Assembly: GCA_023382675.1 (NCBI GenBank)
Contig: JAHDWN010000029.1
Span: 1 to 40,876 of the forward strand
Length of the DNA: 40,876 nt
Source: Anaerolineae bacterium
GTDB lineage: Bacteria > Chloroflexota > Anaerolineae > Aggregatilineales > Phototrophicaceae
Reading direction: 5' to 3'
How positions within the stretch are numbered: position 1 is the stretch's first letter; every line of letters starts with the position of its first letter. The notes beneath the pieces were generated by a model. The model was not told where the DNA came from. It saw only the letters and a program-made list of their open reading frames with translations, and ran no database searches. The position numbers were made by a program, and so were the translations under genes. This document shows positions 3,207-27,612 of this stretch, one piece after another.

Positions 3207-3245
3207 TGATAGTCACGGATGTTGAGTATCAGGGGAAAACATTGT

Positions 3246-6200
3246 ATGGATGTCTTCGAGCTTCGCGATAATCTGACATCCGATTACAGTCAATACGTCC
3301 GCAGCTTCATCAACATTCATGACGACAAAGTCAAGAACGTAGTCGAACTCAGTCTTCAGGAAGAACAATTCTGGCCGGCCCCGCTGATTCAGCTTAATCC
3401 ATCATTTGAAACTGGCGGTACTGTTCGTGAACTGATTGATCTCGGATTACTGCATCCAGAATGTAGTCGTATTTTCCAGAGAAACAAGGCGCAGGGCAGT
3501 CCACAGGCACTTCGGTTGCACCGCCATCAACGCGAGGCCATTGAAATTGCGAGTGCCGGTTACAACTATATGCTGACCACGGGCACGGGCTCGGGAAAAA
3601 GCCTCGCCTACGTTGTTCCCATCGTTGATCATGTTCTTCGGCGTGGTAGTGGCGGCGGCATCCAGGCCATCGTCGTCTACCCAATGAACGCGCTAGCCAA
3701 TAGCCAGATGGGAGAACTGCGCAAGTTTCTTGTCGATGGATATCCTGATGGAGGAGCTCCGGTCACTTTTGCGCGCTACACCGGGCAAGAGACTGAGGAA
3801 GAACGGCGCGCAATAATCGCGCACCCGCCCGACATCTTGCTGACCAATTACGTCATGCTAGAACTGATCATGACACGTCCGCGCGAGCGACAGCTCGTCG
3901 AACGCGCCAAAGGGCTTCGGTTTCTAGTGCTGGATGAACTCCATACCTATCGCGGGCGTCAAGGGGCTGATGTGGCTTTGCTAATGCGCCGCGTACGCAA
4001 TCGACTGGAAACCCGAGATCAGCGCATCATGTTCATCGGTACATCGGCAACATTGGCAACGGAAGGGTCCCACGCCGAACGCCGTGCACAAGTCGCTGAA
4101 GTGAGCTCGCAGATCTTCGGTGTTCCCGTCGAAGCTGAGCATGTCATTGGCGAGACGCTGCACCGTGCAACTCACCCCTATGATAATGCCGAGGCGTTCA
4201 AGCGTGACTTGCGCGACGCTGTCCAGGCTGGCGCGGAGATTCTAACAACTACTCAGTATGACAGCTTTGTCGCACACCCACTTTCCATCTGGATCGAAGA
4301 CAACTTCGGACTTACTGAAGTCGATGGACGTCTTGAACGACAACAGCCACGAAGCATTGCCGGCGAAGAGGGAGCCGCACGTGCACTCGCTTCATTCATA
4401 GGTGTGGATGAAATCACCTGTGAGGAGGCTATTCAGCGCTGGTTGCTCGCAGGATATCAATGTGATCCCAATCCTGAGACCGGGTTCGCACCGTTTGCGT
4501 TTCGACTACACCAATTCATTAGTCCCGGTGATACGGTCTATGCGAGCGTAGAAGTGGAATCAACGAGATACATAACCCTGAGTGGCCAGCACTTCGTCCC
4601 AGGAGAACGCGAACGTGTCTTGTTTCCAGTGTGCTTTTGCCGCGAATGTGGCCAGGAATACTTTGTTGTGCGCAAGTCCACAATCGATGAGTCTTCTAGC
4701 CAGTTCGTTCCTCGCGAGTTCGGTGACCGATTGTCTGATGCCGAGAGCGAGGCAGGCTACCTCTACATCGGATCGCATAAACCATGGCCAACAGACGTTG
4801 AGACGCTGCTTAGTGGCGACTACCTGCCGGACGACTGGCTCGAAGAGCGCAATGGCGTGAAACGCATTCGTGCGCATCGACGCGACAAACTTCCACACCA
4901 TCTTCATGTCCGGGCCTCCGGTGAAGAAGCAGAAGATGGTCTCGCCTGTGTCTATGTGCCGTCACCATTCATGTTCTGCCTCAACTGCGGCGTCGCCTAT
5001 GATCCACGGCAAGGGGACTTTGCAAAGCTGGCAACCCTCAGCTCAGAAGGTCGCAGCAGCGCGACAACTCTCTTAAGCCTATCTGCTATTCGATCACTCA
5101 AAGAAACCGACCTCCCCCTACAGACACAGAAACTCTTGAGTTTCACAGATAATCGTCAGGACGCATCATTGCAGGCCGGACACTTTAATGACTTCATCGA
5201 AGTCAGCCTTCTGCGTGGTGCTATCTATCGTGCAGCGGCAAGTGCCGGAAAGGAAGGGCTTGCGCACGAAATTATTGCCGAGAAGGTTTTCGAAGCCCTA
5301 GACCTGCCGATTGAGCTGTACGCGAGCAATCCGGAAGTACGCTTTCAAGCGCTTCAGGAGACGCAGCGGGCGATGCGACAGGTACTGGGCTACCGCATCT
5401 ACCGTGATCTTCGACGTGGTTGGCGTATTGCACTCCCCAACCTAGAACAGTGTGGACTACTCGAGATTGGATATGCCGATCTGGAAGCCGTGTGCTACGC
5501 CGAAGATGTCTGGCATGAGATGCATCCCGCGCTTGCAACCGCATCCCCAGCGACCCGGATGAAAATCGCGAAGACCTTTTTGGACTATATGCGGCGTGAG
5601 CTGGCAATCAAAGTCGATTACCTTGAAAGCGGCTACCAGGAACGTATTCAGCAGTTGAGCAGTCAGCGTCTGAAAGAGCCCTGGGCAATTGATGAAGACG
5701 AAAGAATGGAATATGCCTGGACGCTCGTCCCCCGTTCATCCGGAGGCGATAGTGGACGTGGAAACTACAAGTACGTTTCGGGACGCGGCGGTTTCGGTAT
5801 CTATCTGCGCCGCCCAGGCACTTTCCGGGAATACCGTGGAGCGGCTCACGAGCGACTGAGCCTGGATGAAACTGAACAGGTCATTCGGAACCTGCTTGAA
5901 GGCTTGCGCGTCGCCGGACTGGTCGAAATCACCCGTGAACCAGAACATGAAGGGGATGTGCCTGGCTACCAGCTTGTTGCTTCTGCAATGCGCTGGTACG
6001 CCGGTGATGGAACGCGCGCTTTCCATGATCCGATTCGTGTACCGCGTGAATCAGAAGCGGGAGGTCTGCCCAATCCATTCTTCGTCGAATTCTACCGCTC
6101 GGTCGCCGGTTCACTTCTTGGGATGATCGCAAAAGAACACACTGCGCAAGTGCCATATGACGAGCGTGAAAAACGCGAGAACCGGTTCCGAACCGGGGAG

Positions 6201-11257: not shown

Positions 11258-11272
11258 GTGGGCGCAACTATC

Positions 11273-11857
11273 ATGACCCTCCAAGATCAGATGCTGCTTC
11301 TCGTTCTGGGTCAGATTCTGACAATTGTCGTTCTAATCGCCTCGAATTTTCTCAATACTCGCCACATGCAGCGCTTGTACCAAGAAGAGTTTAAGACTGA
11401 AGCCAAAATCAAGACGCAAGTTGATTATTTGGAGAGACAATTGGTCGAATTCTACGGCCCAATATCAGCGATCCTTGCCGCACAGGATTTGCTTATCAGA
11501 CAAAGATGGAACCCCGACACCCAAACATACATCGAGATGCCTGAAGAGATCTGGCAAGCCATTCGGGACGAAATTATGATACCGAACGCGAAAACCATTG
11601 CGGAAATAATCACCGGGAAATTTCATCTCGTTGAAGGGATACAAGTTCCTCAAAGTTATATGGACTATCTGGCGCACGCCTACTTCTGGCCCCTGAGCGT
11701 GAAATTGCAGGACAAGGTCGATACAGAATCCAGGCGTTATTACCCTTTCCCAAGCGCATTCAAGGCGGATATTGACAGCACGACAAATGCGCTCAAATCG
11801 CAATACTACAAACTGATTGAGAAAAGGCAGGAGAACTCGCCGGACAGCGAGAAATAG
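11273..11857 (+). CDS. Membrane-anchored coiled-coil protein inside the DISARM-like operon
   Basis: A 194-aa protein beginning MTLQDQM. The frame can also start at a GTG at 11258, directly after the previous stop, but the ATG at 11273 is preceded by a GGTGGG site. Residues about 7-26 (MLLLVLGQILTIVVLIASNF) are one hydrophobic segment at the N-terminus, followed by a charged helical stretch (KTEAKIKTQVDYLERQLVEF) likely to be a coiled coil, and a soluble domain. This fits a membrane-tethered cytoplasmic protein. Its base composition is clearly more AT-rich than both flanking genes, suggesting later insertion between the helicase and methylase. I do not recognise the family. It is not a core DISARM component, so it may be an accessory effector or unrelated cargo. 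Confidence 0.75.
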   Translation: MTLQDQMLLLVLGQILTIVVLIASNFLNTRHMQRLYQEEFKTEAKIKTQVDYLERQLVEFYGPISAILAAQDLLIRQRWNPDTQTYIEMPEEIWQAIRDEIMIPNAKTIAEIITGKFHLVEGIQVPQSYMDYLAHAYFWPLSVKLQDKVDTESRRYYPFPSAFKADIDSTTNALKSQYYKLIEKRQENSPDSEK

Positions 11858-11874
11858 CGTGGGAAGTCCATGAC

Positions 11875-14800
11875 ATGGCATCTAGCAACATCTTCACCAC
11901 CATTCGCACGGAAGGCGCGCTGCTGCCCGCGGATCTGCTCCAGCGCATCAGCGAGGGCACGAACCTCGATGGCCTGACGCCGGAGAGCTATCACCGGCCC
12001 GGCGAGAAGCTCAACGAAGTGATCAACCGCTCGTGGAACGCGCTGCAAGGGGCGTGGGCGAGCTTCCGCACTGCGCAGGAGAACCTGCCGCCGGAAGACC
12101 GAGGCACGACGATCACGCGCGAGCGCTGGCTGTTCCCGCTCTTTCGCGAACTGGACTATGGTCGTTTGCAGACACACCCGACGGCGGAGATTGACGGACG
12201 CCGCTACCCGATCTCGCATGGCTGGGGCGCAGCGCCGATCCATCTGGTGAGCTACCAGCTTGACCTGGACGACCGCACGCCTGGTGTTGCCGGGGCCGCG
12301 AGGGCCACCCCACACAGCCTGATGCAGGTCTACCTCAACCGGAGCGACGAGCACCTGTGGGGCTTTCTGAGCAATGGCTACAAGCTGCGGATTCTGCGTG
12401 ACAACGTTGCGCTGACGCGGCAGGCTTACGTCGAATTCGACCTGGAAGCGATGATGGATGGCGAAGTCTACAGCGATTTCGTGCTGCTGTGGCTGCTGTG
12501 CCATCAATCCCGCGTGGAAGGGGAGCGCCCGTCCGATTGCTGGCTGGAAAAGTGGATGAAGGTCGCCGAGGATCAGGGCACACGCGCCCGTGAGCAGCTC
12601 CGCGTTGGCGTTGAGGAAGCGATCACGGCGCTGGGGCTAGGCTTCATCGAACATCCCGCCAACCATCAACTGCGCGATCGGTTACAAAGCGATGGCGCGG
12701 ACAAACTGGACAAGATGGACTACTACCGCCAGCTGCTGCGGATGGTTTACCGGCTGTTGTTCCTGTTTGCGGCGGAAGACCGCGACTTGCTGCTTGATCC
12801 ACAGGCCGCGCAGGAGGCACGTGAGCGCTACATCAAATACTACTCGACACAGCGGCTGCGGCGCGTGGCGGAGAAGTTCAAAGGCACACGCCATCCCGAC
12901 TTGTTCGAAGGGCTGCGGCTGGTGATGCGGCTTTTGTCAGGTGATGCCCTCACGCAGCCCCCATCCCCGGCCCTTCCCCCTAATGGGGAAGGGAGTCGGC
13001 AGGTCTCTCCCCATGAGGGGGAGAGTTTAAGAGTGGGGGCCGCGAGTCTCGCCCTCGTGGGGCTGGGTTCGTTCCTATTCAGCGATCGTGCCGTCGCGGA
13101 TGTGATCGACTGCCAGATCGCCAACAGCCATCTGCTGGACGCGATCCGCGCGCTCTCGCTGACCTATGATCAACGCGCTCAGGTCTACCGGTCAGTGGAT
13201 TACAAAAACCTGGGAGCGGATGAATATGGCAGTGTGTTCGAGAGTCTTCTTGAACTGCACCCCCAGATCAACATCCCGGCGCGACGTTTCGAGCTGGACA
13301 CCGCCGCAGGCAATGAACGCAAGACGACAGGCAGCTACTACACACCAGATTCACTGGTGCAAGCTCTGCTCGATAGCGCGCTCGACCCGGTGCTTGAGGA
13401 GGCGATTAAAGGCCCTCACCCTAAATCCCTCTCCCAGGGTGAGAGGGACTTGCGTACCCGAAGCGAGGGAGACTTCCTACGGCGCGGCACGAAGGACGCG
13501 GAACAATACGAAAAGATTGCCTCAACGGCAATGGTCGAGATCAGCCGGAATCTGCGCCAGCGGCAGACCTCCGCCGAAGAAGTCATGTGGGAGGCGTTGC
13601 GTGACCGGCGACTGAACAACCTGAAGTTCCGCCGCCAGCACCCGATCGCGGAAACGTCATACGTGGTTGACTTTCTGTGCTATGAAGCCAGGCTCGTGGT
13701 TGAGCTTGACGGCGACATACATCTTGGGCAGCAGGAGGCGGATACCGAGCGCCAGAGCGCAATTGAAGGACTCGGCTACCGTGTTATACGCTTCGCCAAC
13801 GAGGAAGTTCAGAATGACCTCCAGTGGGTGCTGGCGAGAATCGCGCACGCCGCGGCGCTCCCTTCTCCCCCTGGGAGAAGGGCCGGGGATGAGGGCCTCA
13901 CTCCCGAACAGCGCATCCTCGCCCTCAAGGTCTGCGACCCCGCCTGCGGCAGCGGCCACTTCCTGATCGCCGCCGCCAACCGCATGGCCAAGGCGCTGGC
14001 GACCGTGCGCACGGGCGAGGAAGAACCGCCGCCCGCCGCCATCCAGGAGGCAAAGCGCCTTGTCATCGGCCACTGCATCTACGGTGTGGACATCAACCCG
14101 ATGGCGGTCGAGTTGTGCAAGGTCAACCTGTGGATGGAGGCGCTGGAACCGGGCAAGCCGCTCAGCTTCCTCGATCATCGCATCCAGTGCGGCAACAGCC
14201 TGCTGGGGACGACGCCCCGGCTGATGGCGAACGGCATCCCCGACGATGCCTTCAATCCGATCGAGGGCGACGACAAAGCCGATGCCGCCTGGCTCAAGAA
14301 ACTCAACCGGCAGGAGCGCCATGACCGCGAAACCGGGCAGCGCAGCCTGTTCGAGCAGGTCGAGCCGCCCGCGAACTATCGCGCACTCAGCAGCGCGCTG
14401 CGCCAACTGGACAGCATCGACGACGACACGCTGGCCGGACTGCACCGCAAAGAGCAAGCCTACGCCGAGCTTGACCAGAACCCCGAGCGGCAGAAAGCGC
14501 AGATTCTGGCCGATGCCTGGTGCGCGGCGTTTGTCTGGGACAAGGGCGCTTCCAACGGCGTGCCACCGCTCACCGATTTGCAGTATCGCAATCTAGAGCG
14601 AGACCCGCTCGCCGAACGTTATGAAGCCACGCGCCGCTATGTCCAGACCCTGCAGCAGCGCTACCAGTTCTTCCACTGGCACGTGGCGTTCCCGGATGTC
14701 TTCGCCGTGCCGGATACCCTGGACGATGCCGAAAACGAGCAGACCGGCTGGAACGGCGGCTTCGACTGCGTACTCGGCAACCCGCCATGGGAGCGCATCA

Positions 14801-16407
14801 AGATTCAGGAAAAAGAATGGTTCGCGGAACGTGCGCCGGAGATTGCCAACGCGCCCAACGCCGCTGCCCGCCGCAGAGCGATTGCTGAACTGGCCGAGCG
14901 TGCCCCATACCTGCTGCAAGCCTTCAATGACGACAAGCGCAAGGCAGAAGGTGAATCCCATTTTGTCCGCGTGAGTGACCGTTACCCCTTGTGCGGGCGT
15001 GGTGACGTGAACACCTACACCATTTTCGCGGAAACCTCACGCCACGTCATCAATGGCTACGGGCGTGTGGGCATGATTGTGCCGTCAGGTATCGCCACCG
15101 ACGACACGACCAAGTTCTTCTTCCAGGATTTGATGCGTACGCGCAGCCTTGCCAGCCTATATGATTTCGAGAACCGCAATGGGATTTTCCCCGGTGTGCA
15201 TCGCAGCTATAAATTCTCGCTGGTGACAATGACCGGATGGGGAGCTATCGCTCCACAAGCGGAGTTTGTCTTTTTTGCGCTGAATATAGGCGATCTACAG
15301 GATAACTGGCGGCGTTTTACCCTGACTTCCGAGGATATCGCGATGCTGAATCCCAATACTGGAACAATGGCTACCTTCCGTAGCCAGCGTGATGCTGAGG
15401 TCACAAAAGCGATTTATCAGCACATTCCTGTATTGATACAGGAAGAACCACGGGCAAATCCTTGGGGTATTCGGTTCGACGCCATGTTTCATATGTCACT
15501 CGATTCCGATCTATTTCAAAACGAATATAGAAGAGGTTTATTGCCACTCTATGAGGCGAAATTACTTCATCAATTCGATCATAGATATTCAACCTATAAA
15601 TCTCAAACCGAGACCAGATATCTAACCTTGACTGAGAAAAATGATCCGAATTACTCAATTACTCCCCGTTATTGGATCTCAGAAACAGAAGTATTCAGCC
15701 GGATAGACTCGAAGTGGTCTCGAAAATGGATGGTACCTTATAGGCGCATCGCCCGAACTACTGATGAAAGAACGGTTATTGTATCACTAGCACCCACAGT
15801 AGCAGCGGCCGATCCAGCCATGGTGTTGATGCCGCAGGGATACACTGCTGATATGGTTTGTGGCCTGATTTCTAATCTGAATTCTTTCGTTCTTGATTAT
15901 GTGGCTAGGCAAAAGATTGGTGGTACTGATCTAAGGAACCACTTTTTTCAGCAATTCCCTATCATCGCACCACACACACTTACGTCCACTCTACTAGATT
16001 TCATCGTACCGCGTGTGCTTGAATTGTCCTACACCTCATGGGATCTACAGCCCTTCGCCCAAGATGTTGGCTATCAAGGTTCGCCTTTTATGTGGGAAGA
16101 CGAACGACGATTCCTAATGCGTTGCGAACTCGATGCACTCTACTTCCATCTGTATCAGATCAGCCATGATGACGTGGACCACATCATGGATACGTTCCCG
16201 ATTGTTAAGCGTAAGGATGAAACATCTCATGGTGAATATCTGACTAGACGCGTGATTCTAGAAATGTATGATCAGATGACAGCCCTCCCAAAGATATCTG
16301 TCCCGGCGCCGAAGGATGAACACACCAGCTATGTTGCTCCTGATCTGAGGCAGTGGTCAACGTGGCTAAGCCCCGCACCTGCTGATCTATCCATAGCACA
16401 TTCTTAG
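11875..16407 (+). CDS. Eco57I-type N6-adenine methylase, DISARM DrmMI-like, with inserted DUF559 domain
   Basis: A 1510-aa class I DNA N6-adenine methyltransferase, expected to mark self DNA for the DISARM-like system. The N-terminal about 480 residues are helical. GSYYTP (486-491) opens the methylase domain, the S-adenosylmethionine motif DPACGSGHF starts at 688, and the catalytic NPPW is at 969-972. The C-terminal part holds the target-recognition region (about 1110-1380) and a conserved tail ([19 protein letters not shown]). Three oddities. A peptide of about 30 residues near 358-390 comes from two palindromes. About 160 residues between GSYYTP and motif I are an inserted DUF559 domain flanked by palindrome peptides. 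From about 15200 the codons become AT-rich, as if the 3' third came from elsewhere. The frame is open throughout. The start ATG follows GTGGGAAG. Whether the inserted domain permits methylation is unknown. Confidence 0.88.
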   Translation: MASSNIFTTIRTEGALLPADLLQRISEGTNLDGLTPESYHRPGEKLNEVINRSWNALQGAWASFRTAQENLPPEDRGTTITRERWLFPLFRELDYGRLQTHPTAEIDGRRYPISHGWGAAPIHLVSYQLDLDDRTPGVAGAARATPHSLMQVYLNRSDEHLWGFLSNGYKLRILRDNVALTRQAYVEFDLEAMMDGEVYSDFVLLWLLCHQSRVEGERPSDCWLEKWMKVAEDQGTRAREQLRVGVEEAITALGLGFIEHPANHQLRDRLQSDGADKLDKMDYYRQLLRMVYRLLFLFAAEDRDLLLDPQAAQEARERYIKYYSTQRLRRVAEKFKGTRHPDLFEGLRLVMRLLSGDALTQPPSPALPPNGEGSRQVSPHEGESLRVGAASLALVGLGSFLFSDRAVADVIDCQIANSHLLDAIRALSLTYDQRAQVYRSVDYKNLGADEYGSVFESLLELHPQINIPARRFELDTAAGNERKTTGSYYTPDSLVQALLDSALDPVLEEAIKGPHPKSLSQGERDLRTRSEGDFLRRGTKDAEQYEKIASTAMVEISRNLRQRQTSAEEVMWEALRDRRLNNLKFRRQHPIAETSYVVDFLCYEARLVVELDGDIHLGQQEADTERQSAIEGLGYRVIRFANEEVQNDLQWVLARIAHAAALPSPPGRRAGDEGLTPEQRILALKVCDPACGSGHFLIAAANRMAKALATVRTGEEEPPPAAIQEAKRLVIGHCIYGVDINPMAVELCKVNLWMEALEPGKPLSFLDHRIQCGNSLLGTTPRLMANGIPDDAFNPIEGDDKADAAWLKKLNRQERHDRETGQRSLFEQVEPPANYRALSSALRQLDSIDDDTLAGLHRKEQAYAELDQNPERQKAQILADAWCAAFVWDKGASNGVPPLTDLQYRNLERDPLAERYEATRRYVQTLQQRYQFFHWHVAFPDVFAVPDTLDDAENEQTGWNGGFDCVLGNPPWERIKIQEKEWFAERAPEIANAPNAAARRRAIAELAERAPYLLQAFNDDKRKAEGESHFVRVSDRYPLCGRGDVNTYTIFAETSRHVINGYGRVGMIVPSGIATDDTTKFFFQDLMRTRSLASLYDFENRNGIFPGVHRSYKFSLVTMTGWGAIAPQAEFVFFALNIGDLQDNWRRFTLTSEDIAMLNPNTGTMATFRSQRDAEVTKAIYQHIPVLIQEEPRANPWGIRFDAMFHMSLDSDLFQNEYRRGLLPLYEAKLLHQFDHRYSTYKSQTETRYLTLTEKNDPNYSITPRYWISETEVFSRIDSKWSRKWMVPYRRIARTTDERTVIVSLAPTVAAADPAMVLMPQGYTADMVCGLISNLNSFVLDYVARQKIGGTDLRNHFFQQFPIIAPHTLTSTLLDFIVPRVLELSYTSWDLQPFAQDVGYQGSPFMWEDERRFLMRCELDALYFHLYQISHDDVDHIMDTFPIVKRKDETSHGEYLTRRVILEMYDQMTALPKISVPAPKDEHTSYVAPDLRQWSTWLSPAPADLSIAHS
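12971..13025. repeat. Two GC-rich palindromes inside the methylase gene
   Basis: CCCTTCCCC (12971-12979) pairs with GGGGAAGGG (12985-12993), and CTCTCCCC (13005-13012) pairs with GGGGAGAG (13018-13025). They are read in frame as a PPSPALPPNGEG-like peptide, of the type seen in dispersed palindromic repeats of Chloroflexota and relatives. They sit in a region joining two conserved blocks (LVMRLLSGDA and GLGSFLFSDR). Confidence 0.75.
13427..13447. repeat. Left palindrome of the DUF559 insertion
   Basis: CCCTCTC (13427-13433) pairs with GAGAGGG (13441-13447), with CCAGGGT as the loop. A further CCCTCACCC run lies just before it. It marks the left boundary of the inserted nuclease domain. Confidence 0.7.
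13860..13882. repeat. Right palindrome of the DUF559 insertion
   Basis: CCCTTCTCCC (13860-13869) and GGGAGAAGGG (13873-13882) form a perfect ten-base stem with a three-base loop. It lies directly after the last nuclease-domain residues and before the methylase resumes. Confidence 0.75.
16300..16407 (+). repeat. Methylase 3' tail, reference copy R0
   Basis: The current 3' end of the methylase gene (APKDEHTSYVAPDLRQW, then STWLSPAPADLSIAHS and stop). It is the copy in the intact gene, but it is AT-richer and less like the other five than they are like one another. It is followed 22 bases later by the first cargo gene. Confidence 0.75.
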
Positions 16408-17768: not shown

Positions 17769-18314
17769 ATGAGTGTGGCAACTCCGCTTATTCCAAAAGT
17801 GTTCGATGTAATTTTCACTTCTGTCGCTTCTTTCACAAGAAGATACTTGCGTTATGGAATGCCAGCCCTGCTCGCAACTACTGACGGACATTACGTGCAA
17901 ATTGATGAGAACAATCAATTGAGAGCGCGGACAACACAAAAGGCCGAAGCGGCTCATTTTGTCATCCGGGCAGTAGATCGACCTTACGAACCCGATCTAG
18001 GAGGCATCATTCGATATGGCGACTCCGTGACACTTTGCTTCGAAGACACAAGGTTCGTGTCCGCTACGATGGCGGAAGAGCATTGGCAATTGCGACTGAG
18101 GTCACATAGTAGATCTTGGGAAGCTTTTCGGCTTGTACAACTTCCGCCACACTTACGCCGTAATCGGGACACATTCCTGCGATATGGAAGCCTTTTTGCC
18201 TTGATTGCCCATACGGGCAAGACGGTAGGGCATGATAGGAATAATGGCTATCGTTTCTTTGCGACCGTTGATCACATTGAAGATTGGGAGATCTTGATAT
18301 TCGTTAAACCGTAG
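17769..18314 (+). CDS. Beta-trefoil-like protein of unknown function
   Basis: A 181-aa protein; GGAGG at 17753-17757 precedes the ATG. After a 30-residue N-terminus it shows three spaced blocks with a shared pattern: ALLATTDGHYVQID, VTLCFEDTRFVSATM and LFALIAHTGKTVGHD, each followed by a segment with aromatic and basic residues and strands such as AHFVIRAV, EAFRLVQL and WEILIFVKP. Threefold repetition of this kind is typical of fascin- or ricin-like beta-trefoils, which bind sugars, nucleic acid or protein. No catalytic motif is visible. Flanked by remnants R2 and R3, it is cargo of the array. The fold call is moderate and the function open. Confidence 0.65.
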   Translation: MSVATPLIPKVFDVIFTSVASFTRRYLRYGMPALLATTDGHYVQIDENNQLRARTTQKAEAAHFVIRAVDRPYEPDLGGIIRYGDSVTLCFEDTRFVSATMAEEHWQLRLRSHSRSWEAFRLVQLPPHLRRNRDTFLRYGSLFALIAHTGKTVGHDRNNGYRFFATVDHIEDWEILIFVKP

Positions 18315-18475: not shown

Positions 18476-19684
18476 ATGGACGTCTACATCTGCTATTCGC
18501 GGCAGGATGGTTCGTTTGTAAGGGAGCTGTCATTTTTATTGGGACAGCAGCGCGTTTCATCTTGGGTTGATGCAGAAGGCCTTGATTATGGGGCGAATTG
18601 GTGGAGTGACATACGTGAGGGAATAATCGATTCAGATCTATTCTTATTTGTCGTGAGTGATCACTCCCTGCTATCCCCCTTTCTCCATAGGGAGCTTCGT
18701 TTTGCCCGCGAATACAACAAACAGGTCGTAACGCTTACCTATGATGGTCGTGACAAAGTTGATCACCTAGCCCAAGCGCGGCAAGTTGCAGGATCAAAAC
18801 TGCGCAATGAACTGGAGCGTTCGAAGCAGTACAACTATCTCGAGGACCTCACTGTCGAGGAAGCATACGACAATTATGCCTATTTGTCTCAGGTAACGGA
18901 TTACGCATTTACATTGGGAGAGCACAGCGAAACCAACGTGGAAGCCCTTGTGGTGTTTATACGCGCTCATCAGAACCAGGCGCGTCCGCATACACAGTGG
19001 CTGCACCGGGCCGTAGAGTGGAATAACAGCGGTCGTAATCCGGATTTGTTGTTACGCGGTCAGGAACTCCGTGACGCTATCTCGTGGCTGTATTCGAAGG
19101 GTGACGACAAAGTTCCGCCAACACCTATTCACTTTGCCTATATCAACGCCAGTCAGCGTCATAACGGGAAGACGGTGGCAAGGCGCTGGCTGTCTCGCCT
19201 TGGCATAATGCGCGACGACCGAGTATTCATATCCTATCGAAGGGCTGACTCTCAGGAGATAGGTAGAGCAATCTACGATGCACTCGTCGAGCGCTTTGGC
19301 AAACGAACCGTATTCTTTGACATTGACACGATACCTGCGGGCGTTGATTTTGCCGAGTTTATCAGTGGTGTATTGAACAAATGCTCGGTATTCCTGTGTG
19401 TCATTGGTAGTGGATGGGTGAGTGTCCAGGAAAAGGATGGTTCCAGACGACTTGACAACCCGAAAGACTGGGTTCGCCTCGAAGTCGCAACGGCTCTTCG
19501 AAATCCTGATATCACGGTCATCCCGGTACTCATTGGTACTACCAGTATGCCATCTGAACGTCAGCTTCCAGAACCGCTCAGTGAACTCCGCTATCGTAAT
19601 GCCGTTCGAGTGCATGACGACCACCAGTTCAGCAAAGACATGGCACAGTTGACGGAAGACGTAGACGAAGCGCGACGAGCATGA
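18476..19684 (+). CDS. Double TIR-domain protein
   Basis: A 402-aa protein with two TIR domains. The first (about 1-125) starts MDVYICYSRQDGSF and has a possible catalytic Glu at 73 (LHRELRF). A middle segment (about 165-215: WLHRAVEWNNSGRNPDLLLRG then ELRDAISWL) is the linker that usually joins an N-terminal TIR to STAND or WD40 modules. The second TIR (about 247-390) starts RVFISYRRADSQEIG, continues FFDIDTIPAGVDF and has Glu336 in VRLEVATAL. TIR domains in bacterial defence usually cleave NAD+ or make signalling nucleotides upon phage sensing. No separate sensor domain is present, so triggering may come from a partner. Flanked by R3 and R4. Confidence 0.85.
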   Translation: MDVYICYSRQDGSFVRELSFLLGQQRVSSWVDAEGLDYGANWWSDIREGIIDSDLFLFVVSDHSLLSPFLHRELRFAREYNKQVVTLTYDGRDKVDHLAQARQVAGSKLRNELERSKQYNYLEDLTVEEAYDNYAYLSQVTDYAFTLGEHSETNVEALVVFIRAHQNQARPHTQWLHRAVEWNNSGRNPDLLLRGQELRDAISWLYSKGDDKVPPTPIHFAYINASQRHNGKTVARRWLSRLGIMRDDRVFISYRRADSQEIGRAIYDALVERFGKRTVFFDIDTIPAGVDFAEFISGVLNKCSVFLCVIGSGWVSVQEKDGSRRLDNPKDWVRLEVATALRNPDITVIPVLIGTTSMPSERQLPEPLSELRYRNAVRVHDDHQFSKDMAQLTEDVDEARRA

Positions 19685-19878: not shown

Positions 19879-21687
19879 ATGTCACGATATATTTTCCTAA
19901 GCTATAGCCGCGATGAACTCAGCATTGCCAGAAGACTCCGAGACAAGTTGAAAGGCGCTGGTTTCAACGTTTGGATGGATGAGTCCGACCTTGAAATTGC
20001 CGACAACTGGCGGCAGGAAATCGCGGAGGCGGTGCGGTCATCCCAGGCCATTGTCATAGCCCTGTCGCCATCGGCTAAAAGCTCACCGTATGTTTCGGAA
20101 GAAATTGACCTTGCGCTCAACGGCTCAGTGCGACCCTTCCCCATCATCATTCATGGTCGCGAGGATACGGCGGTTCCCGACTCGCTGAATCACCTGCAAT
20201 ACATTGAAGGGGTTGACGAAAAATTCAACTCGGGAGTGGAGAAGCTCACTCAGGCACTTTATGACTTCGCTGCTATTCGACGTCTCGATAGACTATGGCG
20301 AATAATCGCTGCCGCACTTGCAGTCTTGCTCATACTTGTGGCTGCCACAGCGTTCATTCTTCTGCGCTCCGGGCATACTGTCCTCCCGGGCGTTTCGCTG
20401 ATTAGCGTGCGCTACGTTGCGGATGGTTTTGATCCACGTCTGCTTGATATGAGAACGGCTGAAGCGGATGGTATTCCTATCCGAGCGAATGTGGCATTCC
20501 AAATCGATAACCTATGGGTCTCAGTATCCGGCGAGACGGCTGGATACACCATCGGCGCTGAACTCTACGCCGGAGATGAGTACATTGGTGCGTCAAACAT
20601 AACGACACTTTGGCCCGGTATGATGTCTTTGGGAGCGATAATTCCCAAGAATTACATTCACAGCACGGTGAACAACGCCGTTTCGTTTCAGGCATCGTGG
20701 GATCATCTGGTTATCGCGTTGGTCATCTATAAGGATGGCGTTGCGATAAGCACTGCGAGGACTACCATCAGAATTGATCCTAGTGGTACATCCTGGGTTT
20801 GGGATGCTCCTCATGCTTATCTTGCTTCGGTGGTCTATTCAATCAATGGTGGCCCCGAATTGGTTTTTGACCCAAGGGCGAGGCTGGATGGAATTGATGC
20901 CCATCCTGGCGATCAGATTACTTTGCATCAGGTTTGGTACAGATCGGATACGTCCAGCGCCGATGCAAGTGTGCAGGTGGAGGCGTACATTACGGCTATA
21001 GGCTACGATCCCACAACTGTACAAGTTTCGTCGTCCAGCGAGATTCGGTTCGACATAAATCAAGTAGACAATTTTGCGGCGATGACCTGGCAGGTAAGGC
21101 CTGCAGACGAATTCTGGGTGATCTACTTGAACCGTGACGATGGGCCTGTGTTGGACTCCTACATTATTCCTCTCAATGCCAACAAAAGTCCTGGCCTTCA
21201 CAGTTCATCCAATGTGCTGCGTTGGCCCTTCAGCAGAGCCACATATGTCGATTTTGAGAATCAACCCGATCTGGCTGATTGGTTCGCAGGAGATACCAGC
21301 TCGATTGCGCAGTCTTCGGCGGAGGCATTCTCAGGCTCATACTCTCTGGCTGTTACGACTACTTCGGCAGTTGAAGATAATCAGAAAGTCTTCTGGGATC
21401 GCCCACTTCAGGCCGATACGATCGTGGGACAGGTCTATTGGCCGGAGCAAGCCGGTGTCTATCGAGAATGGGCGCAGTTTTGTGCCTGGGCGTGCGTACC
21501 CATTGATGTCCAAGCTAACCGATGGAATACATTTAGCATGGATGTGTCCGAATTGACATACAACGACACACCTCTCACTGAGCTCAGAATTCCTCAGTTG
21601 TGGATACAGGTTCAGCTCAACGGGGTTAGCGCGGATAATCCTTATACCTTTTATGTGGACGGCATCCAATACTTCCCAAACGATTAA
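19879..21687 (+). CDS. TIR protein with one transmembrane helix and a beta-rich outer domain
   Basis: A 602-aa protein; GAGGA lies nine bases before the ATG. Residues 1-130 are a TIR domain (MSRYIFLSYSRDELSIARRL, FNVWMDESDLEIADNW, with possible catalytic Glu74/75 in YVSEEIDLAL). A single hydrophobic helix follows at about 142-162 (IIAAALAVLLILVAATAFILL). The remaining about 440 residues lack the cysteine and charge pattern of cytoplasmic enzymes and look like successive beta-sandwich domains. The last about 150 (YVDFENQPDLADWF to YTFYVDGIQYF) resemble carbohydrate-binding or discoidin-like modules. Topology is predicted as TIR inside and ectodomain outside, a receptor-like layout in which an envelope event could activate a NADase. 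That function is inferred. Flanked by R4 and R5. Confidence 0.82.
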   Translation: MSRYIFLSYSRDELSIARRLRDKLKGAGFNVWMDESDLEIADNWRQEIAEAVRSSQAIVIALSPSAKSSPYVSEEIDLALNGSVRPFPIIIHGREDTAVPDSLNHLQYIEGVDEKFNSGVEKLTQALYDFAAIRRLDRLWRIIAAALAVLLILVAATAFILLRSGHTVLPGVSLISVRYVADGFDPRLLDMRTAEADGIPIRANVAFQIDNLWVSVSGETAGYTIGAELYAGDEYIGASNITTLWPGMMSLGAIIPKNYIHSTVNNAVSFQASWDHLVIALVIYKDGVAISTARTTIRIDPSGTSWVWDAPHAYLASVVYSINGGPELVFDPRARLDGIDAHPGDQITLHQVWYRSDTSSADASVQVEAYITAIGYDPTTVQVSSSSEIRFDINQVDNFAAMTWQVRPADEFWVIYLNRDDGPVLDSYIIPLNANKSPGLHSSSNVLRWPFSRATYVDFENQPDLADWFAGDTSSIAQSSAEAFSGSYSLAVTTTSAVEDNQKVFWDRPLQADTIVGQVYWPEQAGVYREWAQFCAWACVPIDVQANRWNTFSMDVSELTYNDTPLTELRIPQLWIQVQLNGVSADNPYTFYVDGIQYFPND

Positions 21688-22601: not shown

Positions 22602-24839
22602 ATGAAACCTGAGAAACTCACTGTCTACCAGTTGTTCGAACGTCAACAGCGCTATATCGTTCCGCTTTTCCAGCGCCCCTACGTCTGGGAGAAGGAACAG
22701 CAGTGGAAGCCCCTGTGGGACGACCTCACCTTCAAAGCCAATCAGATCATCGACCGCGACAGCTATGAGCGCGATATTGGTGCGCATTTCCTGGGCGCGG
22801 CAGTCATCAACGAGCTGAAGACGTTCGGCAAGCAGGTTCGGAAGTATGAGATCATCGACGGTCAACAGCGACTGACCACGCTGCAAATCCTGTTGATGGC
22901 ATTCCGCAGCTTCTTGAAGCAAATTGCTTTTGAAGATGAGGCGCTGCTCGGCGAGCTAGCACGCCTGACAGCCAATGGGGGTTCACGGTCCGAGGAAATC
23001 GAGAAGTACAAGGTATGGCCAACCACGGCGGATCGCTCAACTTTTGAGGCGATTGTCGTTGCAGCCTCGCCACAAGACTTACGTCGGCTAGATGGGCAGG
23101 CGGGCTCACAACGGCTTGCGCAGGCCTACCACTTCTTCTATGACAGCATTGATGAGTATGTGCGTTTTGGGGAGAACGACGACGAGATCATCTCCCCAGA
23201 GTACGCCTACGATTCGGATATGGCCCGTACCCGCATCGATGCCTTGATGGAAGCGCTGAAACGGCATTTAGAGATCGTCATCATCGAGTTGGAAAGCAGC
23301 GACGATCCACAAATCATCTTTGAAACGCTCAATGCGCGAGGCGTTCCCCTCTTTCCTTCTGACCTCATTCGCAATTTCGTCTTCCTTGAGGCGGCAAACC
23401 ACAAAGAGGACACTGAGCGCCTGTACAACAATTACTGGCTGATGTACGACGATTATGAGCATGGTGCGGCTGGTTTCTGGAAAGAGGAAGAGAAGCAGGG
23501 GCGTCTCAGTCGTCCGCGTATCGACCTGTTCATGTTTCACTACCTGACACTCAAGACAGGGCAGGAGATCAAGATCACGCACCTATTCCAGGAGTTTCGG
23601 CGCTGGTGGCAGCATACGCGCAAACAAGATGAACCGGTCGAACATTACCTGCGAGACATTGCGCGATATAGCAGGGCATATCATCGCTTGGTCACCATGG
23701 AAGGCCAATCGCGGCTGGGAGTATTTATTCGTCGGCTCAAGGCCATGGATACGGGCACGTTGTATCCTCTGCTGCTCTACTTCTATGGAGAGCGTACGGA
23801 TATTCCGGCTGTCGAGATGGAAGGTATGCTGGCTGATCTGGAGTCCTATCTCGTCCGGCGCATGATTTGCGGACTCTCTGCTCAGAACTACAACCGCAAT
23901 TTCCTCATTGTCCTTCGCGACCTAAGGCGTGCTGAGAACCTGGATCGTACGGTACTTCGTGACATCCTTTCCGGTTTTGAAGGCGATGCCGGTCGCTGGC
24001 CTACGGACGATGATTTTCAACAGAGCTGGCTCCAGTCCCCGATCTATCGGCGTCTCGCACGGGCGCGCGTACGGGTAGTGCTCGAAGCCGTCGATTTGCA
24101 GTTGATGACCAATAAGCAGGAGCGCGTTCACATTGACGGTGAACTCACTATCGAGCACGTTTTTCCCCAAACGCCCGAACATGGTGTGTGGCCGCAGCTG
24201 GATAACCCCGATCTAATTCATACCTTTGGCAATCTAACCTTGCTCACGAGCGCATTGAATGCGTCCGTAAGCAATGGACCATTCGCTGCCAAATGCCCGG
24301 AGATTGCGAAGCAAAGCAGTCTCCGGCTAAATGCATTCTTCCAGGGTTTCGTCGGCCAGGATACATGGGATGCGGAGCATATCGTTAACCGTGGGCAGCA
24401 ACTTTTCGAGACTGCAATCGAGGTCTGGCCGCGTCCAGCACAGCAGACTACGATCAGATTGTCTCCAGGTCAGGAGCGCGCTATTGTCTCGCTGTGCGAT
24501 ATTGCCGATCAAAATGGAATTGGAGCTGGTTTTCGTTCGCTGCGGGACGCCGGATTACGAAACGCGCTGTATCCGCGTATTGAGGCAACCAGCATCATGT
24601 ATGCACCCCAAGCGAACAAGAATCGCGCTTTGTTCACTGTCTGGGCAACACCGAGGGATGATGCCCTTAAGGTCTACGTCGCTACGGATGCTTTCCCCGA
24701 GTTCTTTGCCGTGAACACTGATACGGCTTACAGCCTCTTGGGTGCACCCGGTTGGCGTATGATGACCGATAGGGACGCAGATGAGTTTTCACAAGCGCTT
24801 GACAACCTATTTCGGCCAGGTGACTCAGCACCGCAATAG
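22602..24839 (+). CDS. GmrSD-like type IV restriction protein (DUF262-DUF1524)
   Basis: A 745-aa protein. The N-terminal DUF262 part shows VPLFQRPYVWEKEQQW and the ParB-like nucleotide-binding signature IIDGQQRLTTLQ (Asp86 to Arg90). The C-terminal DUF1524 part has an HNH-type nuclease motif: IEHVFPQ (His519), then HTFGNLTLLTSALN (Asn544). This is the fused GmrSD layout, an NTP-dependent nuclease family that attacks DNA with modified bases such as glucosylated hydroxymethylcytosine. About 120 extra residues follow the nuclease (about 625-745), ending in a small alpha/beta domain (ALKVYVATDAFPEFF) that may bind DNA or a partner. The next gene follows within about 20 bases. All key residues look intact. 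Confidence 0.88.
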   Translation: MKPEKLTVYQLFERQQRYIVPLFQRPYVWEKEQQWKPLWDDLTFKANQIIDRDSYERDIGAHFLGAAVINELKTFGKQVRKYEIIDGQQRLTTLQILLMAFRSFLKQIAFEDEALLGELARLTANGGSRSEEIEKYKVWPTTADRSTFEAIVVAASPQDLRRLDGQAGSQRLAQAYHFFYDSIDEYVRFGENDDEIISPEYAYDSDMARTRIDALMEALKRHLEIVIIELESSDDPQIIFETLNARGVPLFPSDLIRNFVFLEAANHKEDTERLYNNYWLMYDDYEHGAAGFWKEEEKQGRLSRPRIDLFMFHYLTLKTGQEIKITHLFQEFRRWWQHTRKQDEPVEHYLRDIARYSRAYHRLVTMEGQSRLGVFIRRLKAMDTGTLYPLLLYFYGERTDIPAVEMEGMLADLESYLVRRMICGLSAQNYNRNFLIVLRDLRRAENLDRTVLRDILSGFEGDAGRWPTDDDFQQSWLQSPIYRRLARARVRVVLEAVDLQLMTNKQERVHIDGELTIEHVFPQTPEHGVWPQLDNPDLIHTFGNLTLLTSALNASVSNGPFAAKCPEIAKQSSLRLNAFFQGFVGQDTWDAEHIVNRGQQLFETAIEVWPRPAQQTTIRLSPGQERAIVSLCDIADQNGIGAGFRSLRDAGLRNALYPRIEATSIMYAPQANKNRALFTVWATPRDDALKVYVATDAFPEFFAVNTDTAYSLLGAPGWRMMTDRDADEFSQALDNLFRPGDSAPQ

Positions 24840-24855
24840 GGGGAGGCTACTCTCG

Positions 24856-25542
24856 GTGACAGTAACACGCGATAACCTCTGGTTCGCATTACCTTCGGAA
24901 CCGCCATTTGTGCTGGACATCGATCGATATGCCATCGAGAGGTTCATAGCGGGTGAAGCGTGCCAGCCCGATCAGTCCCGGAGAATACATGCCGAGTTGA
25001 TGCCTGAACCTTATCTGGGCGATCCGTTCATTGCGCCTGTCATCCTGCTCAATCTCAATCCCGGCTACAGCGCAGAAGATTGCAGGTTCTACGCTGATGC
25101 ATCAAGGCGACGCGCGTGCCGGGATAATCTGGAGCACAAGCGAGCTGCGTACCCGTTCTTTCTGCTGAACCCAGACTATGCGCTGTTCTCCGGGCCGAGG
25201 TGGTGGCGCGCGAAACTCAAACAGCTCATTGTCGAAACGAGCCTGGAGCAAGTCGCTAGGAAAGTATGCTGTATAGAGTATTTTCCGTATCACTCTCCGA
25301 AATTTGGGTTCGGGAAACTAATTCTAGAGTCGCAGCGCTACAGCTTTGATTTGGTGCGAAGAGCTATCGCCGACCGCAAGATCATCGTGGCAATGCGTGC
25401 GCGACGTTTGTGGGAAAATGCAGTGCCTGAATTGAAATCTCATCACTGCCTCGAGCTAAATTCTCCACAGAGCGTCTGGATCACGCGCAATAACATATCA
25501 GAAGGTGGCTTTGACCACATCAAGAAAGCAATTGCCAAGTGA
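24856..25542 (+). CDS. Possible uracil-DNA-glycosylase-fold protein linked to GmrSD
   Basis: A 228-aa protein. The frame is open from 24781 inside the GmrSD gene, but a GTG at 24856, 17 bases after that gene's stop and nine bases after GGGAGG (24841-24846), is the better start. It reads VILLNLNPGYS (63-72), YFPYHSPKFG (142-151), ESQRYSFDLVRRAI (158-171), IIVAMRARRLW (176-186) and LNSPQSVWITRNN (201-213). A glycine-proline loop after a buried strand and a later SPQ loop recall motifs 1 and 2 of the uracil-DNA glycosylase superfamily, but the resemblance is weak and catalytic residues cannot be assigned. Tight linkage suggests it works with the GmrSD-like enzyme. Confidence 0.55.
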   Translation: MTVTRDNLWFALPSEPPFVLDIDRYAIERFIAGEACQPDQSRRIHAELMPEPYLGDPFIAPVILLNLNPGYSAEDCRFYADASRRRACRDNLEHKRAAYPFFLLNPDYALFSGPRWWRAKLKQLIVETSLEQVARKVCCIEYFPYHSPKFGFGKLILESQRYSFDLVRRAIADRKIIVAMRARRLWENAVPELKSHHCLELNSPQSVWITRNNISEGGFDHIKKAIAK

Positions 25543-25611
25543 GCTGCGCGCATTCCTGCAATTAAATCCGTCGTGTTATCGGTTTTTGCCCGTTCTGTAG
25601 GAGCATCTGTT

Positions 25612-27612
25612 ATGCCCATCCCTGCACAAAATGACTTCCTGCTCCCGTTCCTGCAAATCCTCAGCGACGGCAACCGCGTGACGCGTGGTCAAATGCTGTT
25701 CCGGCTCGGCAAGCACTTTAACTTGAGCCAGTCAGAACTGAATGACATGACTGGCAATCAGTTCACAGTCATCAATCGCCTCGCCTGGTGTGACGCTCAT
25801 TTTGTCAAAGCGGGCTTTGTCGATAAGCGCCAGCATCACGCCGACAGTATGGAGGACGAGTTCAGCATCGCCTCACTGGGGATGCGCGAGCTGCAGAAGC
25901 ATCCTGAAAAGATCACCGTTGGCTATCTGCAGGGCTTCTACCGAGGCAAAGTACATCGGGGCGCAGGCTCAGATGACACGACCAGCGATGCCGAACTGCT
26001 GCTCTACGAACGCTTTGAGAAGCTGGCCGATCCGTTCGTCATCTTCCACAGTGTACGTTGGATTACCCACGACTCGCGCAACTTTGGCAGCATTGGCGAG
26101 GCCGATTTCATCATTGCTCATCCGGCACACGGCGTCCTGGTGCTGGAGGTCAAAGGCGGCGAAATCTCCATCGAAGCAGGACAATGGCTCAGCCGCGATC
26201 AGCGGGGAATGCTGCACGAAATCAAAGACCCTTGTGCGCAGGCCGAGCGCAATCGCTGGGCGCTGGTCGATTGGCTCGCCAATAGTTTCTCGACGCGCCA
26301 GCACCGATTCGCCGTTTTCGCCGCCGTTGCGCTGCCGGACTCTCGCGTCGCGGTTGATGTACGCCCAGACTGCGTTGAAGACATGTTCATCGACATGCAT
26401 CATCTCGATGATCTCGAAGCGCGCCTGCTTGCGATTTTTGCGTTCTGGAAGCGCCGGGCTGATAGCCGCAACCAGCAGATGGATGGCAGAGCAGCAGTGA
26501 ATGCACTGACGGACTTGCTCGTACCTACGCGGACCCTCCAGCCACGCGTGGCAGAAATCTTCGAGCGCGAGCGGCGCAAGATCGACGAACTGACCCAGAC
26601 ACAATTTCGCATTTTGCGTCAACTGCGGATGCATCGACGTGCGGCGATCATCGGGGGCGCTGGCACCGGGAAAACCATGCTGGCGATGGAGAAAGCTCAG
26701 CAGCTTGCAGATGCCGGCTTCCGTGTGCTCTTGGTCTGCTTCAATAAACATCTGGCGGATTGGATCGAAGGCAACTTGCAACACCCGAATATCCTGGTGT
26801 CCACCTACCATGCGCTTGTGGGACGATCACGACATTGGGCGGGACTATCCGGAACGGGACCACGCATGGAATGGGATGAGTTTCGCGTAAGAGCCCCTGA
26901 GATCTTGATGGACGCTGTCAATATCATCCGCGCGCCCGGCTCGAATGCGATGGACAAGCTATTTGATGCCATCATCGTCGACGAAGCGCAAGATTTCGAA
27001 GATACTTGGTGGATTACGCTACCAGACTTGCTCAAAGACCCGGAGACAGGTGTCTTTTACGTTTTCTTTGATGACAACCAACGGATATTTACTCAGATCA
27101 GCAATATTCCGATGGATACCGAGCCGTTCTATCTGGACGAGAACTGTCGCAACACGCGGCACATTCACGCGGCGCTGCTGCCTTATGCGCGTGTGGATAA
27201 CGAGACCATCGCCAATGGGCCAGAGGGCCGTCCCGTGCAGATTATCCCCGCATCGGACAAGAATTCTACCCGTCGGGAATTGCAGCGCGTCTTGCACCAG
27301 CTCGTCAATGAAGAGGGAATACCTGCAGAAGACATTGTCATCTTGACGCCCGCCAGCGAGAAGCGCAGTCAGTGGCGAAATGATGATCAGCTTGGCAACT
27401 TCATCATCACCTGGAATCTCGATACTGAGATGTCAATGGCGGCGCGGGTATGCACTATCTATAGCTACAAGGGTCTCGAAAGCGCGGTCGTCATTTTGAC
27501 TGAACTTGATCTGGCACGAGAGGACATCCGCGACCAACTCATCTATGTGGGACTTTCGCGTGCTCGGCATCATGTCGTCGTTGTAGGGGAGTTGCCTCCG
27601 GCATTGCCCTAG
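25612..27612 (+). CDS. Mrr-N / NERD nuclease / UvrD-like helicase fusion
   Basis: A 666-aa protein; TAGGAG eight bases upstream supports the ATG at 25612 over an earlier in-frame one at 25573. Residues about 1-110 form a winged-helix Mrr N-terminal domain (VTRGQMLFRLGKHFNLSQSE). Residues about 125-260 are a NERD nuclease-related domain with the PD-(D/E)XK-like pattern GEADFIIAHPAHGVLVLEVK (Asp165, Glu179, Lys181). Residues 340-666 are a superfamily 1 helicase: Walker A GGAGTGKT (348-355), VDEAQDF (456-462), and near the end IYSYKGLESAVVIL and YVGLSRARHHVVVVG. Such fusions occur in defence islands and probably cut and unwind foreign DNA. It has its own ribosome-binding site about 70 bases after the previous stop. 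Confidence 0.85.
   Translation: MPIPAQNDFLLPFLQILSDGNRVTRGQMLFRLGKHFNLSQSELNDMTGNQFTVINRLAWCDAHFVKAGFVDKRQHHADSMEDEFSIASLGMRELQKHPEKITVGYLQGFYRGKVHRGAGSDDTTSDAELLLYERFEKLADPFVIFHSVRWITHDSRNFGSIGEADFIIAHPAHGVLVLEVKGGEISIEAGQWLSRDQRGMLHEIKDPCAQAERNRWALVDWLANSFSTRQHRFAVFAAVALPDSRVAVDVRPDCVEDMFIDMHHLDDLEARLLAIFAFWKRRADSRNQQMDGRAAVNALTDLLVPTRTLQPRVAEIFERERRKIDELTQTQFRILRQLRMHRRAAIIGGAGTGKTMLAMEKAQQLADAGFRVLLVCFNKHLADWIEGNLQHPNILVSTYHALVGRSRHWAGLSGTGPRMEWDEFRVRAPEILMDAVNIIRAPGSNAMDKLFDAIIVDEAQDFEDTWWITLPDLLKDPETGVFYVFFDDNQRIFTQISNIPMDTEPFYLDENCRNTRHIHAALLPYARVDNETIANGPEGRPVQIIPASDKNSTRRELQRVLHQLVNEEGIPAEDIVILTPASEKRSQWRNDDQLGNFIITWNLDTEMSMAARVCTIYSYKGLESAVVILTELDLAREDIRDQLIYVGLSRARHHVVVVGELPPALP

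What the first reader, a model, noticed from the sequence alone, without database searches (positions are those of the whole stretch)
19879..21687. Receptor-like TIR protein: cytoplasmic TIR, one membrane helix, large outer beta domain
Bacterial TIR defence proteins are mostly cytosolic with STAND, TPR or pore partners. Here the order TIR, helix (142-162), about 440 residues of beta modules with a carbohydrate-binding-like end suggests that an envelope event, such as phage adsorption, could switch on a NADase, an arrangement reminiscent in layout of animal Toll receptors but in reversed order.
Basis: partly seen in the sequence, partly recalled or inferred. Interest (0 to 1): 0.68.

Follow-up and report, generated by a model that had tools for sequence, protein, structure and literature searches.

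The report
Membrane TIR protein with outer sensor-like tail
This bacterial gene joins an immune-type, probably NAD-cutting domain inside the cell to a large domain that probably lies outside it, one of about two dozen such membrane proteins in the same genome, and the outer part also turns up without the immune domain in other bacteria.

Summary
In detail: 19879-21687(+) encodes 602 residues: TIR (5-123, Pfam TIR_2 82 bits), one strong hydrophobic helix (142-160), then about 440 residues. Glu75 lies in the conserved TIR glutamate column (62 of 66 TIR places of this genome). TIR inside, tail outside is supported but unproven: positive-inside charge in 23 of 24 similar own-genome proteins; the protein's only two cysteines form a pair conserved in 7 of 7 aligned homologues of the last domain; tail homologues in two other families follow three predicted helices and have no TIR.

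The tail is two related repeats plus a C-terminal domain (JR), which also occurs in small TIR-less membrane proteins, one beside a prokaryotic Argonaute, one beside candidate defence pair PDC-M24. Carbohydrate binding rests on sub-threshold matches only.

The layout is not unique: the genome has 66 TIR places, 24 of them TIR-one-helix-tail (WD40, FGE-sulfatase, SH3, others).

Best reading: a membrane-anchored, probably active TIR enzyme whose outer tail senses or tethers to the envelope. That phage adsorption is the trigger is untested. New variant of a known kind.

The parts
19879..21687 (+). whole gene, 602 aa: TIR, one membrane helix, two-repeat region, C-terminal JR domain
19891..20247 (+). 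TIR domain, residues 5-123
   Evidence: Pfam TIR_2 6.1e-23; phmmer to solved TIR chains 7uwg, 7uxr, 8g83 at E 2.9e-6 to 4.8e-6
20101..20103 (+). Glu75, presumed catalytic glutamate
   Evidence: column is Glu in 62 of 66 TIR places of the genome; opposite Glu in chain 7uwg
20302..20364 (+). membrane helix, residues about 142-162; four Arg in the 15 residues before it
   Evidence: hydropathy 2.96 over 142-160; charges
20386..20793 (+). outer repeat 1, residues about 170-305
   Evidence: internal repeat and homologues L011, L105
20809..21198 (+). outer repeat 2, residues about 311-440
   Evidence: internal repeat and homologues L011, L105
21226..21684 (+). C-terminal JR domain (name given here), residues about 450-602
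   Evidence: profile matches in G464, G650, G710, G671, G530, G821; sub-threshold CBM_4_9
21481..21495 (+). Cys535 to Cys539, the only cysteines of the protein
   Evidence: positions; pair invariant in 7 of 7 aligned JR rows
18476..19684 (+). neighbouring gene, 402 aa, two TIR domains, no predicted helix
   Evidence: Pfam TIR_2, two stretches; 194 bp upstream of the finding
22602..24839 (+). GmrSD-type restriction protein, part of the same island
   Evidence: Pfam GmrSD_N 1.3e-35 and GmrSD_C 3.5e-22

Best explanation
A type II membrane protein of an immune or self-recognition kind. The N-terminal TIR lies in the cytoplasm and is probably an NAD+-cleaving enzyme (inferred from fold and glutamate). 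One helix crosses the membrane. The tail, two related repeats and a probably disulfide-closed C-terminal domain, lies outside, where it binds an envelope or surface ligand or partner. Ligand binding or clustering of the tail brings TIR domains together and switches the enzyme on, which depletes NAD+ or makes a nucleotide signal. Shown here by sequence: domain order, conserved glutamate, helix, tail as a separate module, conserved cysteine pair, defence-island setting. Inferred: sidedness, enzyme activity, ligand, induced clustering, role against phage.
For: TIR match and solved relatives, one of them named NAD(+) hydrolase AbTIR; Glu75 conserved. Sidedness: net charge before the helix exceeds that after it in 23 of 24 TIR-one-helix proteins of the genome, one tie, against 40.5% at random positions of the same proteins; counting only Lys and Arg 22 of 24, one tie, one reversed. 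Tail homologues in G464 and G231 follow three helices at the 1.8 threshold, again an odd number. JR proteins of G710, G671 and G821 follow two helices with a loop of net charge +2 between, +1 after the second, which puts JR outside if the loop is inside. The protein has two cysteines only; the pair is conserved in 7 of 7 JR rows, and G710, G671, G821 also have no others. Several sister proteins carry Thr/Pro-rich stalks directly after the helix, which is usual outside the cell (general knowledge). Setting: DruE-like, DpdE-like, GmrSD and NERD-helicase genes in the window; JR relatives beside pAgo (G650), PDC-M24A/B (G710), DrmMI/NsnA/NsnB-like genes (G530) and 2.4 kb from a PDC-S27 match (G671).
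Against: No structure: both single-sequence models failed (pLDDT 33.1 and 43.2). The two full or partial tail homologues have no TIR, so the tail has a function of its own. The protein's own charge difference is small (+2 against +1; of the 24 only one is smaller and two are equal). At a laxer threshold the G464 tail has one further hydrophobic stretch (308, mean 1.63), which would change the count if it were a helix. In G650 and G464 the JR proteins have cysteines besides the pair. G464 and G231 copies sit among metabolic genes (my reading), and no background rate of defence genes was measured. No ligand evidence beyond sub-threshold CBM matches, absent in six other JR pieces.
Confidence: 0.45

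Rival explanations
1. The tail is only an anchor. The TIR is a cytoplasmic-side effector switched on by an internal signal or by a partner such as the adjacent double-TIR protein; the outer part holds it to the wall or surface and senses nothing.
For: The tail, or JR alone, sits on membrane proteins without a TIR. The double-TIR gene lies 194 bp upstream on the same strand.
Against: A 440-residue tail is large for an anchor, and sister proteins carry varied tails, which fits ligand choice better than anchoring. Size and variety are indirect arguments.
Confidence: 0.25
2. Cell-cell recognition or development in a multicellular bacterium, not phage defence: the TIR signals through NAD+ products on contact with kin or non-kin.
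For: 24 such proteins with varied tails in one genome. Published work ties conflict systems to multicellular bacteria, with Chloroflexi among the groups named (PMC7159879, passages; PMC10907252, passages).
Against: The window and several JR relatives lie among restriction and candidate defence genes. The lifestyle of this organism is unknown to me.
Confidence: 0.2
3. The TIR is a scaffold without enzyme activity, assembling with other TIR proteins at the membrane.
For: Two other TIR domains are next door; TIR assembly is an established mode (general knowledge).
Against: The glutamate is kept here and in 62 of 66 places.
Confidence: 0.1

Closest known systems
Bacterial TIR domains with solved structures (chains 7uwg, 7uxr, 8g83; the last named NAD(+) hydrolase AbTIR)
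   Same: TIR similarity by sequence, glutamate opposite glutamate
   Different: The matches cover residues 5-79 at most; helix and outer tail have no counterpart in them
Thoeris ThsB / type III ThcB4
   Same: TIR similarity: ThcB4 model 36.7 bits for the finding, 54.8 for the double-TIR neighbour
   Different: Far below the cut-off of 220; match covers the TIR part only; no SIR2 or Macro match among the 19 window proteins scanned by Pfam
Animal Toll-like receptors
   Same: Receptor-like layout with a cytoplasmic TIR (inferred sidedness)
   Different: Order reversed (N-terminal TIR, type II), no leucine-rich repeat match; similarity of layout only
DGR-diversified putative antigen sensors of multicellular bacteria (PMC10907252, passages read)
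   Same: Some sensor domains are predicted periplasmic or secreted, and some systems use TIR effectors
   Different: Those are CLec-domain targets with STAND or MoxR partners; Pfam shows no such domain in this tail. No search for a retroelement was made
TIR-one-helix-tail proteins of the same genome
   Same: N-terminal TIR, one later helix, C-terminal tail (24 of 66 places)
   Different: Of 21 of the 23 others scanned: 10 clear WD40 tails and 1 weak one, 3 FGE-sulfatase, 1 CarboxypepD_reg, 1 SH3_3, 5 without a tail match at E 0.001. The tail of the finding matched no other place of the own genome

Membership tests
TIR domain proteins (Pfam TIR_2) | match over the curated cut-off | tested here: met
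   82.1 bits, cut-off 28
TIR NADases | conserved glutamate | tested here: met
   Glu75; Glu in 62 of 66 places; alignment to 7uwg
TIR NADases | NAD+ cleavage | not testable with these tools
   needs an assay
Thoeris (ThsB, ThcB4) | family model over its cut-off | tested here: not met
   NF058526 36.7 bits, cut-off 220; PADLOC ThsB models match within the TIR only
Thoeris | ThsA-type partner (SIR2-SLOG or Macro) beside it | tested here: not met
   no such match among 19 window proteins scanned by Pfam; other ORFs of the window and the rest of the genome not tested
CBASS/SAVED-TIR effectors | SAVED or other nucleotide-sensing domain | tested here: not met
   PADLOC SAVED_TIR model matches residues 5-81 only; no Pfam sensor domain
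Toll-like receptors | leucine-rich ectodomain, TIR at the C-terminus | tested here: not met
   TIR is N-terminal, no LRR match
Carbohydrate-binding modules CBM_4_9 / CBM22 | profile match over cut-off | tested here: not met
   CBM_4_9 15.3 bits, cut-off 25.9; best PDB match of the JR profile is a xylanase chain, 4xup, E 0.2 (that it is a CBM22 chain is recalled); no CBM match in 6 other JR pieces
Type II membrane protein (N in, C out) | sidedness of the tail | tested here: inconclusive
   charge rule 23 of 24, cysteine pair, helix counts of TIR-less homologues; prediction only

The most novel reading that the evidence does not exclude
A bacterial lineage has built a repertoire of type II membrane TIR receptors, about two dozen in one genome, by joining an N-terminal TIR and one helix to interchangeable outer tails; the JR-bearing tail here is a shared outer sensor also used without TIR next to other defence systems (Argonaute, PDC-M24, restriction islands), so that infection is read at the cell surface before DNA entry.
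Probability: 0.25. Interest if true: 0.85.

Novelty: new variant of a known kind. Interest (0 to 1): 0.55.

Why it matters
How TIR-based bacterial immunity recognises infection is still being worked out: the abstract of a 2025 Thoeris paper says it was not known, and its title reports capsid sensing (PMC12578639, title and start of abstract in the listing). A TIR enzyme controlled from outside the cell would be a bacterial counterpart in layout to surface immune receptors and would make 'sensing at the envelope' testable. The TIR-less JR proteins give a handle: if JR is the sensor, one ligand may serve several defence systems.

Tried and rejected
Structure: AlphaFold2 on the tail alone (residues 166-602) gave pLDDT 33.1, pTM 0.22; on residues 443-602 alone 43.2 and 0.37. 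Both too poor for fold searches, so none was run. Sequence searches of solved structures with the last domain (nothing), the JR profile (best E 0.2) and the tail profile (best E 0.17) gave nothing significant.

Distribution: no tail match in 50,697 phage or 72,556 plasmid records, none confirmed in viral contigs. Genome contigs gave one locus, TIR part only. Hits dismissed, by my reading of the ORFs: L012 (68-residue match in a multi-helix membrane protein) and L013 (E 0.005, frame with two stops). The G296 hit (E 0.009, 45 positions) was not examined.

Tree of 93 TIR domains (64 of 66 own places, the two below cut-off dropped, plus 29 relatives picked for similarity to the window TIR, which biases it): one-helix label changes 16 against a shuffled mean of 24.3; WD40 label 3 against 10.6. 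Supports near the window TIR are mixed (0.106 to 0.859). I take only that the layout is not confined to one TIR lineage and that the WD40 group is mostly one.

One search looked at one strand with too strict a pattern and at one strand; both are superseded (both strands, 29 of 29 loci found). In one search the rule gave 6 of 29; I dropped L078 because its helix is weak and far from the TIR, leaving 5.

Promoter and terminator scan around the gene: no more than shuffles. Papers: one search returned none; some searches returned lists (some longer than what was shown) in which I saw no description of a TIR-helix-outer-tail repertoire. I read passages only, of PMC8195603, PMC10907252, PMC9153377, PMC7159879 and PMC7272460. 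PMC9153377 mentions TIR proteins, in prokaryotes among others, with short additional regions such as transmembrane ones; PMC7272460 says that some ThsA, not the TIR protein, have membrane helices. This is not proof that the repertoire is unpublished.

Full report
The thing itself. Window 19879-21687(+) is an intact ORF of 602 codons. Residues 5-123 are a TIR domain (Pfam TIR_2 6.1e-23, 82.1 bits, cut-off 28), with solved bacterial TIR domains as nearest sequences in the PDB (7uwg 2.9e-6, 7uxr 3.4e-6, 8g83 4.8e-6, the last named NAD(+) hydrolase AbTIR). In an alignment of the 66 TIR_2 places of the genome, Glu75 is in a column with Glu in 62 of 66; Glu74 is in a variable column. One hydrophobic helix (142-160, mean hydropathy 2.96) follows, with four arginines in the 15 residues before it. 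The rest, about 440 residues, has no Pfam match in the whole-protein scan at E 0.1.

The tail. A search of 98 genomes of the own family found the tail in the own genome only. In 298 genomes of the class one strong homologue appeared (G231, 38% identity over 272 residues), with two weak hits that I dismissed. A two-row profile over 396 genomes of the class added one more (G464, E 1.6e-40) and one weak hit not examined. Both homologues carry the tail behind three helices predicted at the 1.8 threshold and have no TIR; the G464 tail has one further stretch at mean 1.63, which I take for a beta part. G231 ends after the two repeats, G464 has the full tail. The repeats are related: score 48 in the window protein, reached by 1 of 500 shuffles, and 113 in G231, reached by 0 of 500. 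The families of the two homologues gave no others (1 of 46 and 1 of 14 genomes, each the query's own).

The C-terminal domain (called JR here). A three-row profile over 400 genomes of the phylum found JR in four genomes of another family besides the own genome; that family searched with a JR profile gave 5 of 41 genomes, the own family 1 of 98, and another search over 400 genomes of the phylum, perhaps much the same draw, 4 of 400, all known already. The proteins are small: one N-terminal helix plus JR (G650, 187 aa), two helices plus JR (G710, G671, G821); in G530 the stretch in frame with JR has no helix, so its membrane part is out of frame, lost or misassembled. In the alignment of seven JR rows ten columns are invariant, among them two cysteines. 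The window protein has exactly two cysteines, 535 and 539, and G710, G671 and G821 have exactly two, the same pair; G464 has one more, in a predicted helix, and G650 has two more. A conserved pair in mostly cysteine-free proteins fits a disulfide in an oxidising, outside location (inference). Carbohydrate binding: CBM_4_9 E 0.026 for the window piece, below cut-off, a xylanase chain at E 0.2 for the profile, none in six other JR pieces. That is a lead, not a finding.

Sidedness. Among 24 own-genome proteins with N-terminal TIR and exactly one later helix, the 15 residues before the helix are more positive than the 15 after it in 23, with one tie; at random positions of the same proteins the share is 40.5%; counting only Lys and Arg it is 22, one tie, one reversed. 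The window protein is a weak example (+2 against +1; only one of the 24 shows a smaller difference, two the same). The odd helix number in the two TIR-less tail homologues, the +2 loops of the two-helix JR proteins and the cysteine pair agree with a tail outside. All this is prediction.

The genome. It has 66 TIR_2 places, 64 over the cut-off, in 6.4 Mb. Of these, 24 fit TIR-one-helix-tail; three of the 24 are poor examples (one TIR below cut-off, one tail of 54 residues, one helix far from the TIR at 365-383). Pfam on 21 of the 23 others: WD40 in 10 clearly and 1 weakly, FGE-sulfatase in 3, CarboxypepD_reg in 1, SH3_3 in 1, no tail match at E 0.001 in 5 (one of the five, L015, shows a sub-threshold TPR match); two were not scanned. 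Among the 29 TIR relatives from other genomes of the family that were made loci, one per genome, 5 have this layout, including the best match of all, L075 (42% identity). So the layout recurs here and the window protein is one member with a rare tail. The taxon is not named by the tools; the only named hit is an Anaerolineae MAG at 36% identity in the TIR, so Chloroflexota is likely but not established.

The setting. Upstream: DruE-like helicase (PADLOC 2.6e-103), DpdE-like SNF2 protein (2.1e-257), a 1510-residue DUF559/methyltransferase protein, a 181-residue protein, and a 402-residue double-TIR protein ending 194 bp before the finding. Downstream: GmrSD, a weak Brig1-like protein, an Mrr_N-NERD-UvrD fusion. 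JR relatives: pAgo 372 bp upstream in G650 (9.7e-277), DrmMI, NsnA and NsnB matches in G530, PDC-M24A and PDC-M24B directly downstream in G710, PDC-S27 2.4 kb from the G671 copy. G464 and G231 copies lie among metabolic genes by my reading. In G821 a fragment upstream shares a motif with the window's DruE-like helicase but had no PADLOC match. So 5 of 7 JR loci have a PADLOC match at 1e-5 or better nearby; in the other two, few neighbours were tested (two in G821, one in G464). No background rate was measured, and PADLOC model matches are not system calls.

Mechanism. I take it as a type II membrane TIR whose tail binds something outside and whose TIRs are activated by clustering, with NAD+ loss or a nucleotide signal as output. 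Fold, glutamate, helix, module nature and setting are shown by sequence; sidedness is supported by prediction; activity, ligand and trigger are inferred. The strongest counterpoint is that the same tail works on proteins without TIR, so it may be an anchor or have another partner.

Known or new. TIR enzymes are well known. PMC9153377 (passages) mentions TIR proteins, in prokaryotes among others, with transmembrane regions, and PMC10907252 (passages) proposes periplasmic or secreted sensors in conflict systems. I found no account of a TIR-helix-outer-tail repertoire in the searches named in Tried and rejected. I call it a new variant of a known kind.

Noticed in passing
own genome G000: 66 TIR_2 places, 64 over cut-off, in 6.4 Mb; a relative (G011) shows 128 first-look candidates for the window TIR.
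   Followed up: partly
window 3219-16407: Block with a DruE-like helicase, a DpdE-like SNF2 protein and a DUF559-methyltransferase protein; resembles parts of Druantia, DISARM and Dpd systems; not assigned to one.
   Followed up: partly
window 25573-27612: Mrr_N, NERD and UvrD-type helicase in one protein; PADLOC RTasNERD-Hel 1.1e-67.
   Followed up: no
window 24781-25542: Weak match to anti-phage DNA glycosylase Brig1 (1.8e-7, 30.9 bits, cut-off 230).
   Followed up: no
window 17769-18314: 181-residue protein upstream of the double-TIR gene; only a sub-threshold Fascin match (E 0.17), lower GC than its neighbours (0.476).
   Followed up: no
L114:9099-9662: 187-residue JR protein with an N-terminal helix, 372 bp after a prokaryotic Argonaute gene in G650; possible partner.
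   Followed up: partly
L116 and L126: In G530 and G821 the JR gene is followed by the same type of large protein (AAA_5 match in the G530 one; similar start of sequence in both).
   Followed up: partly
L027, L041, L047: TIR-helix-FGE-sulfatase proteins in the own genome; this fold is a known target of diversity-generating retroelements (recalled); none was searched for.
   Followed up: no
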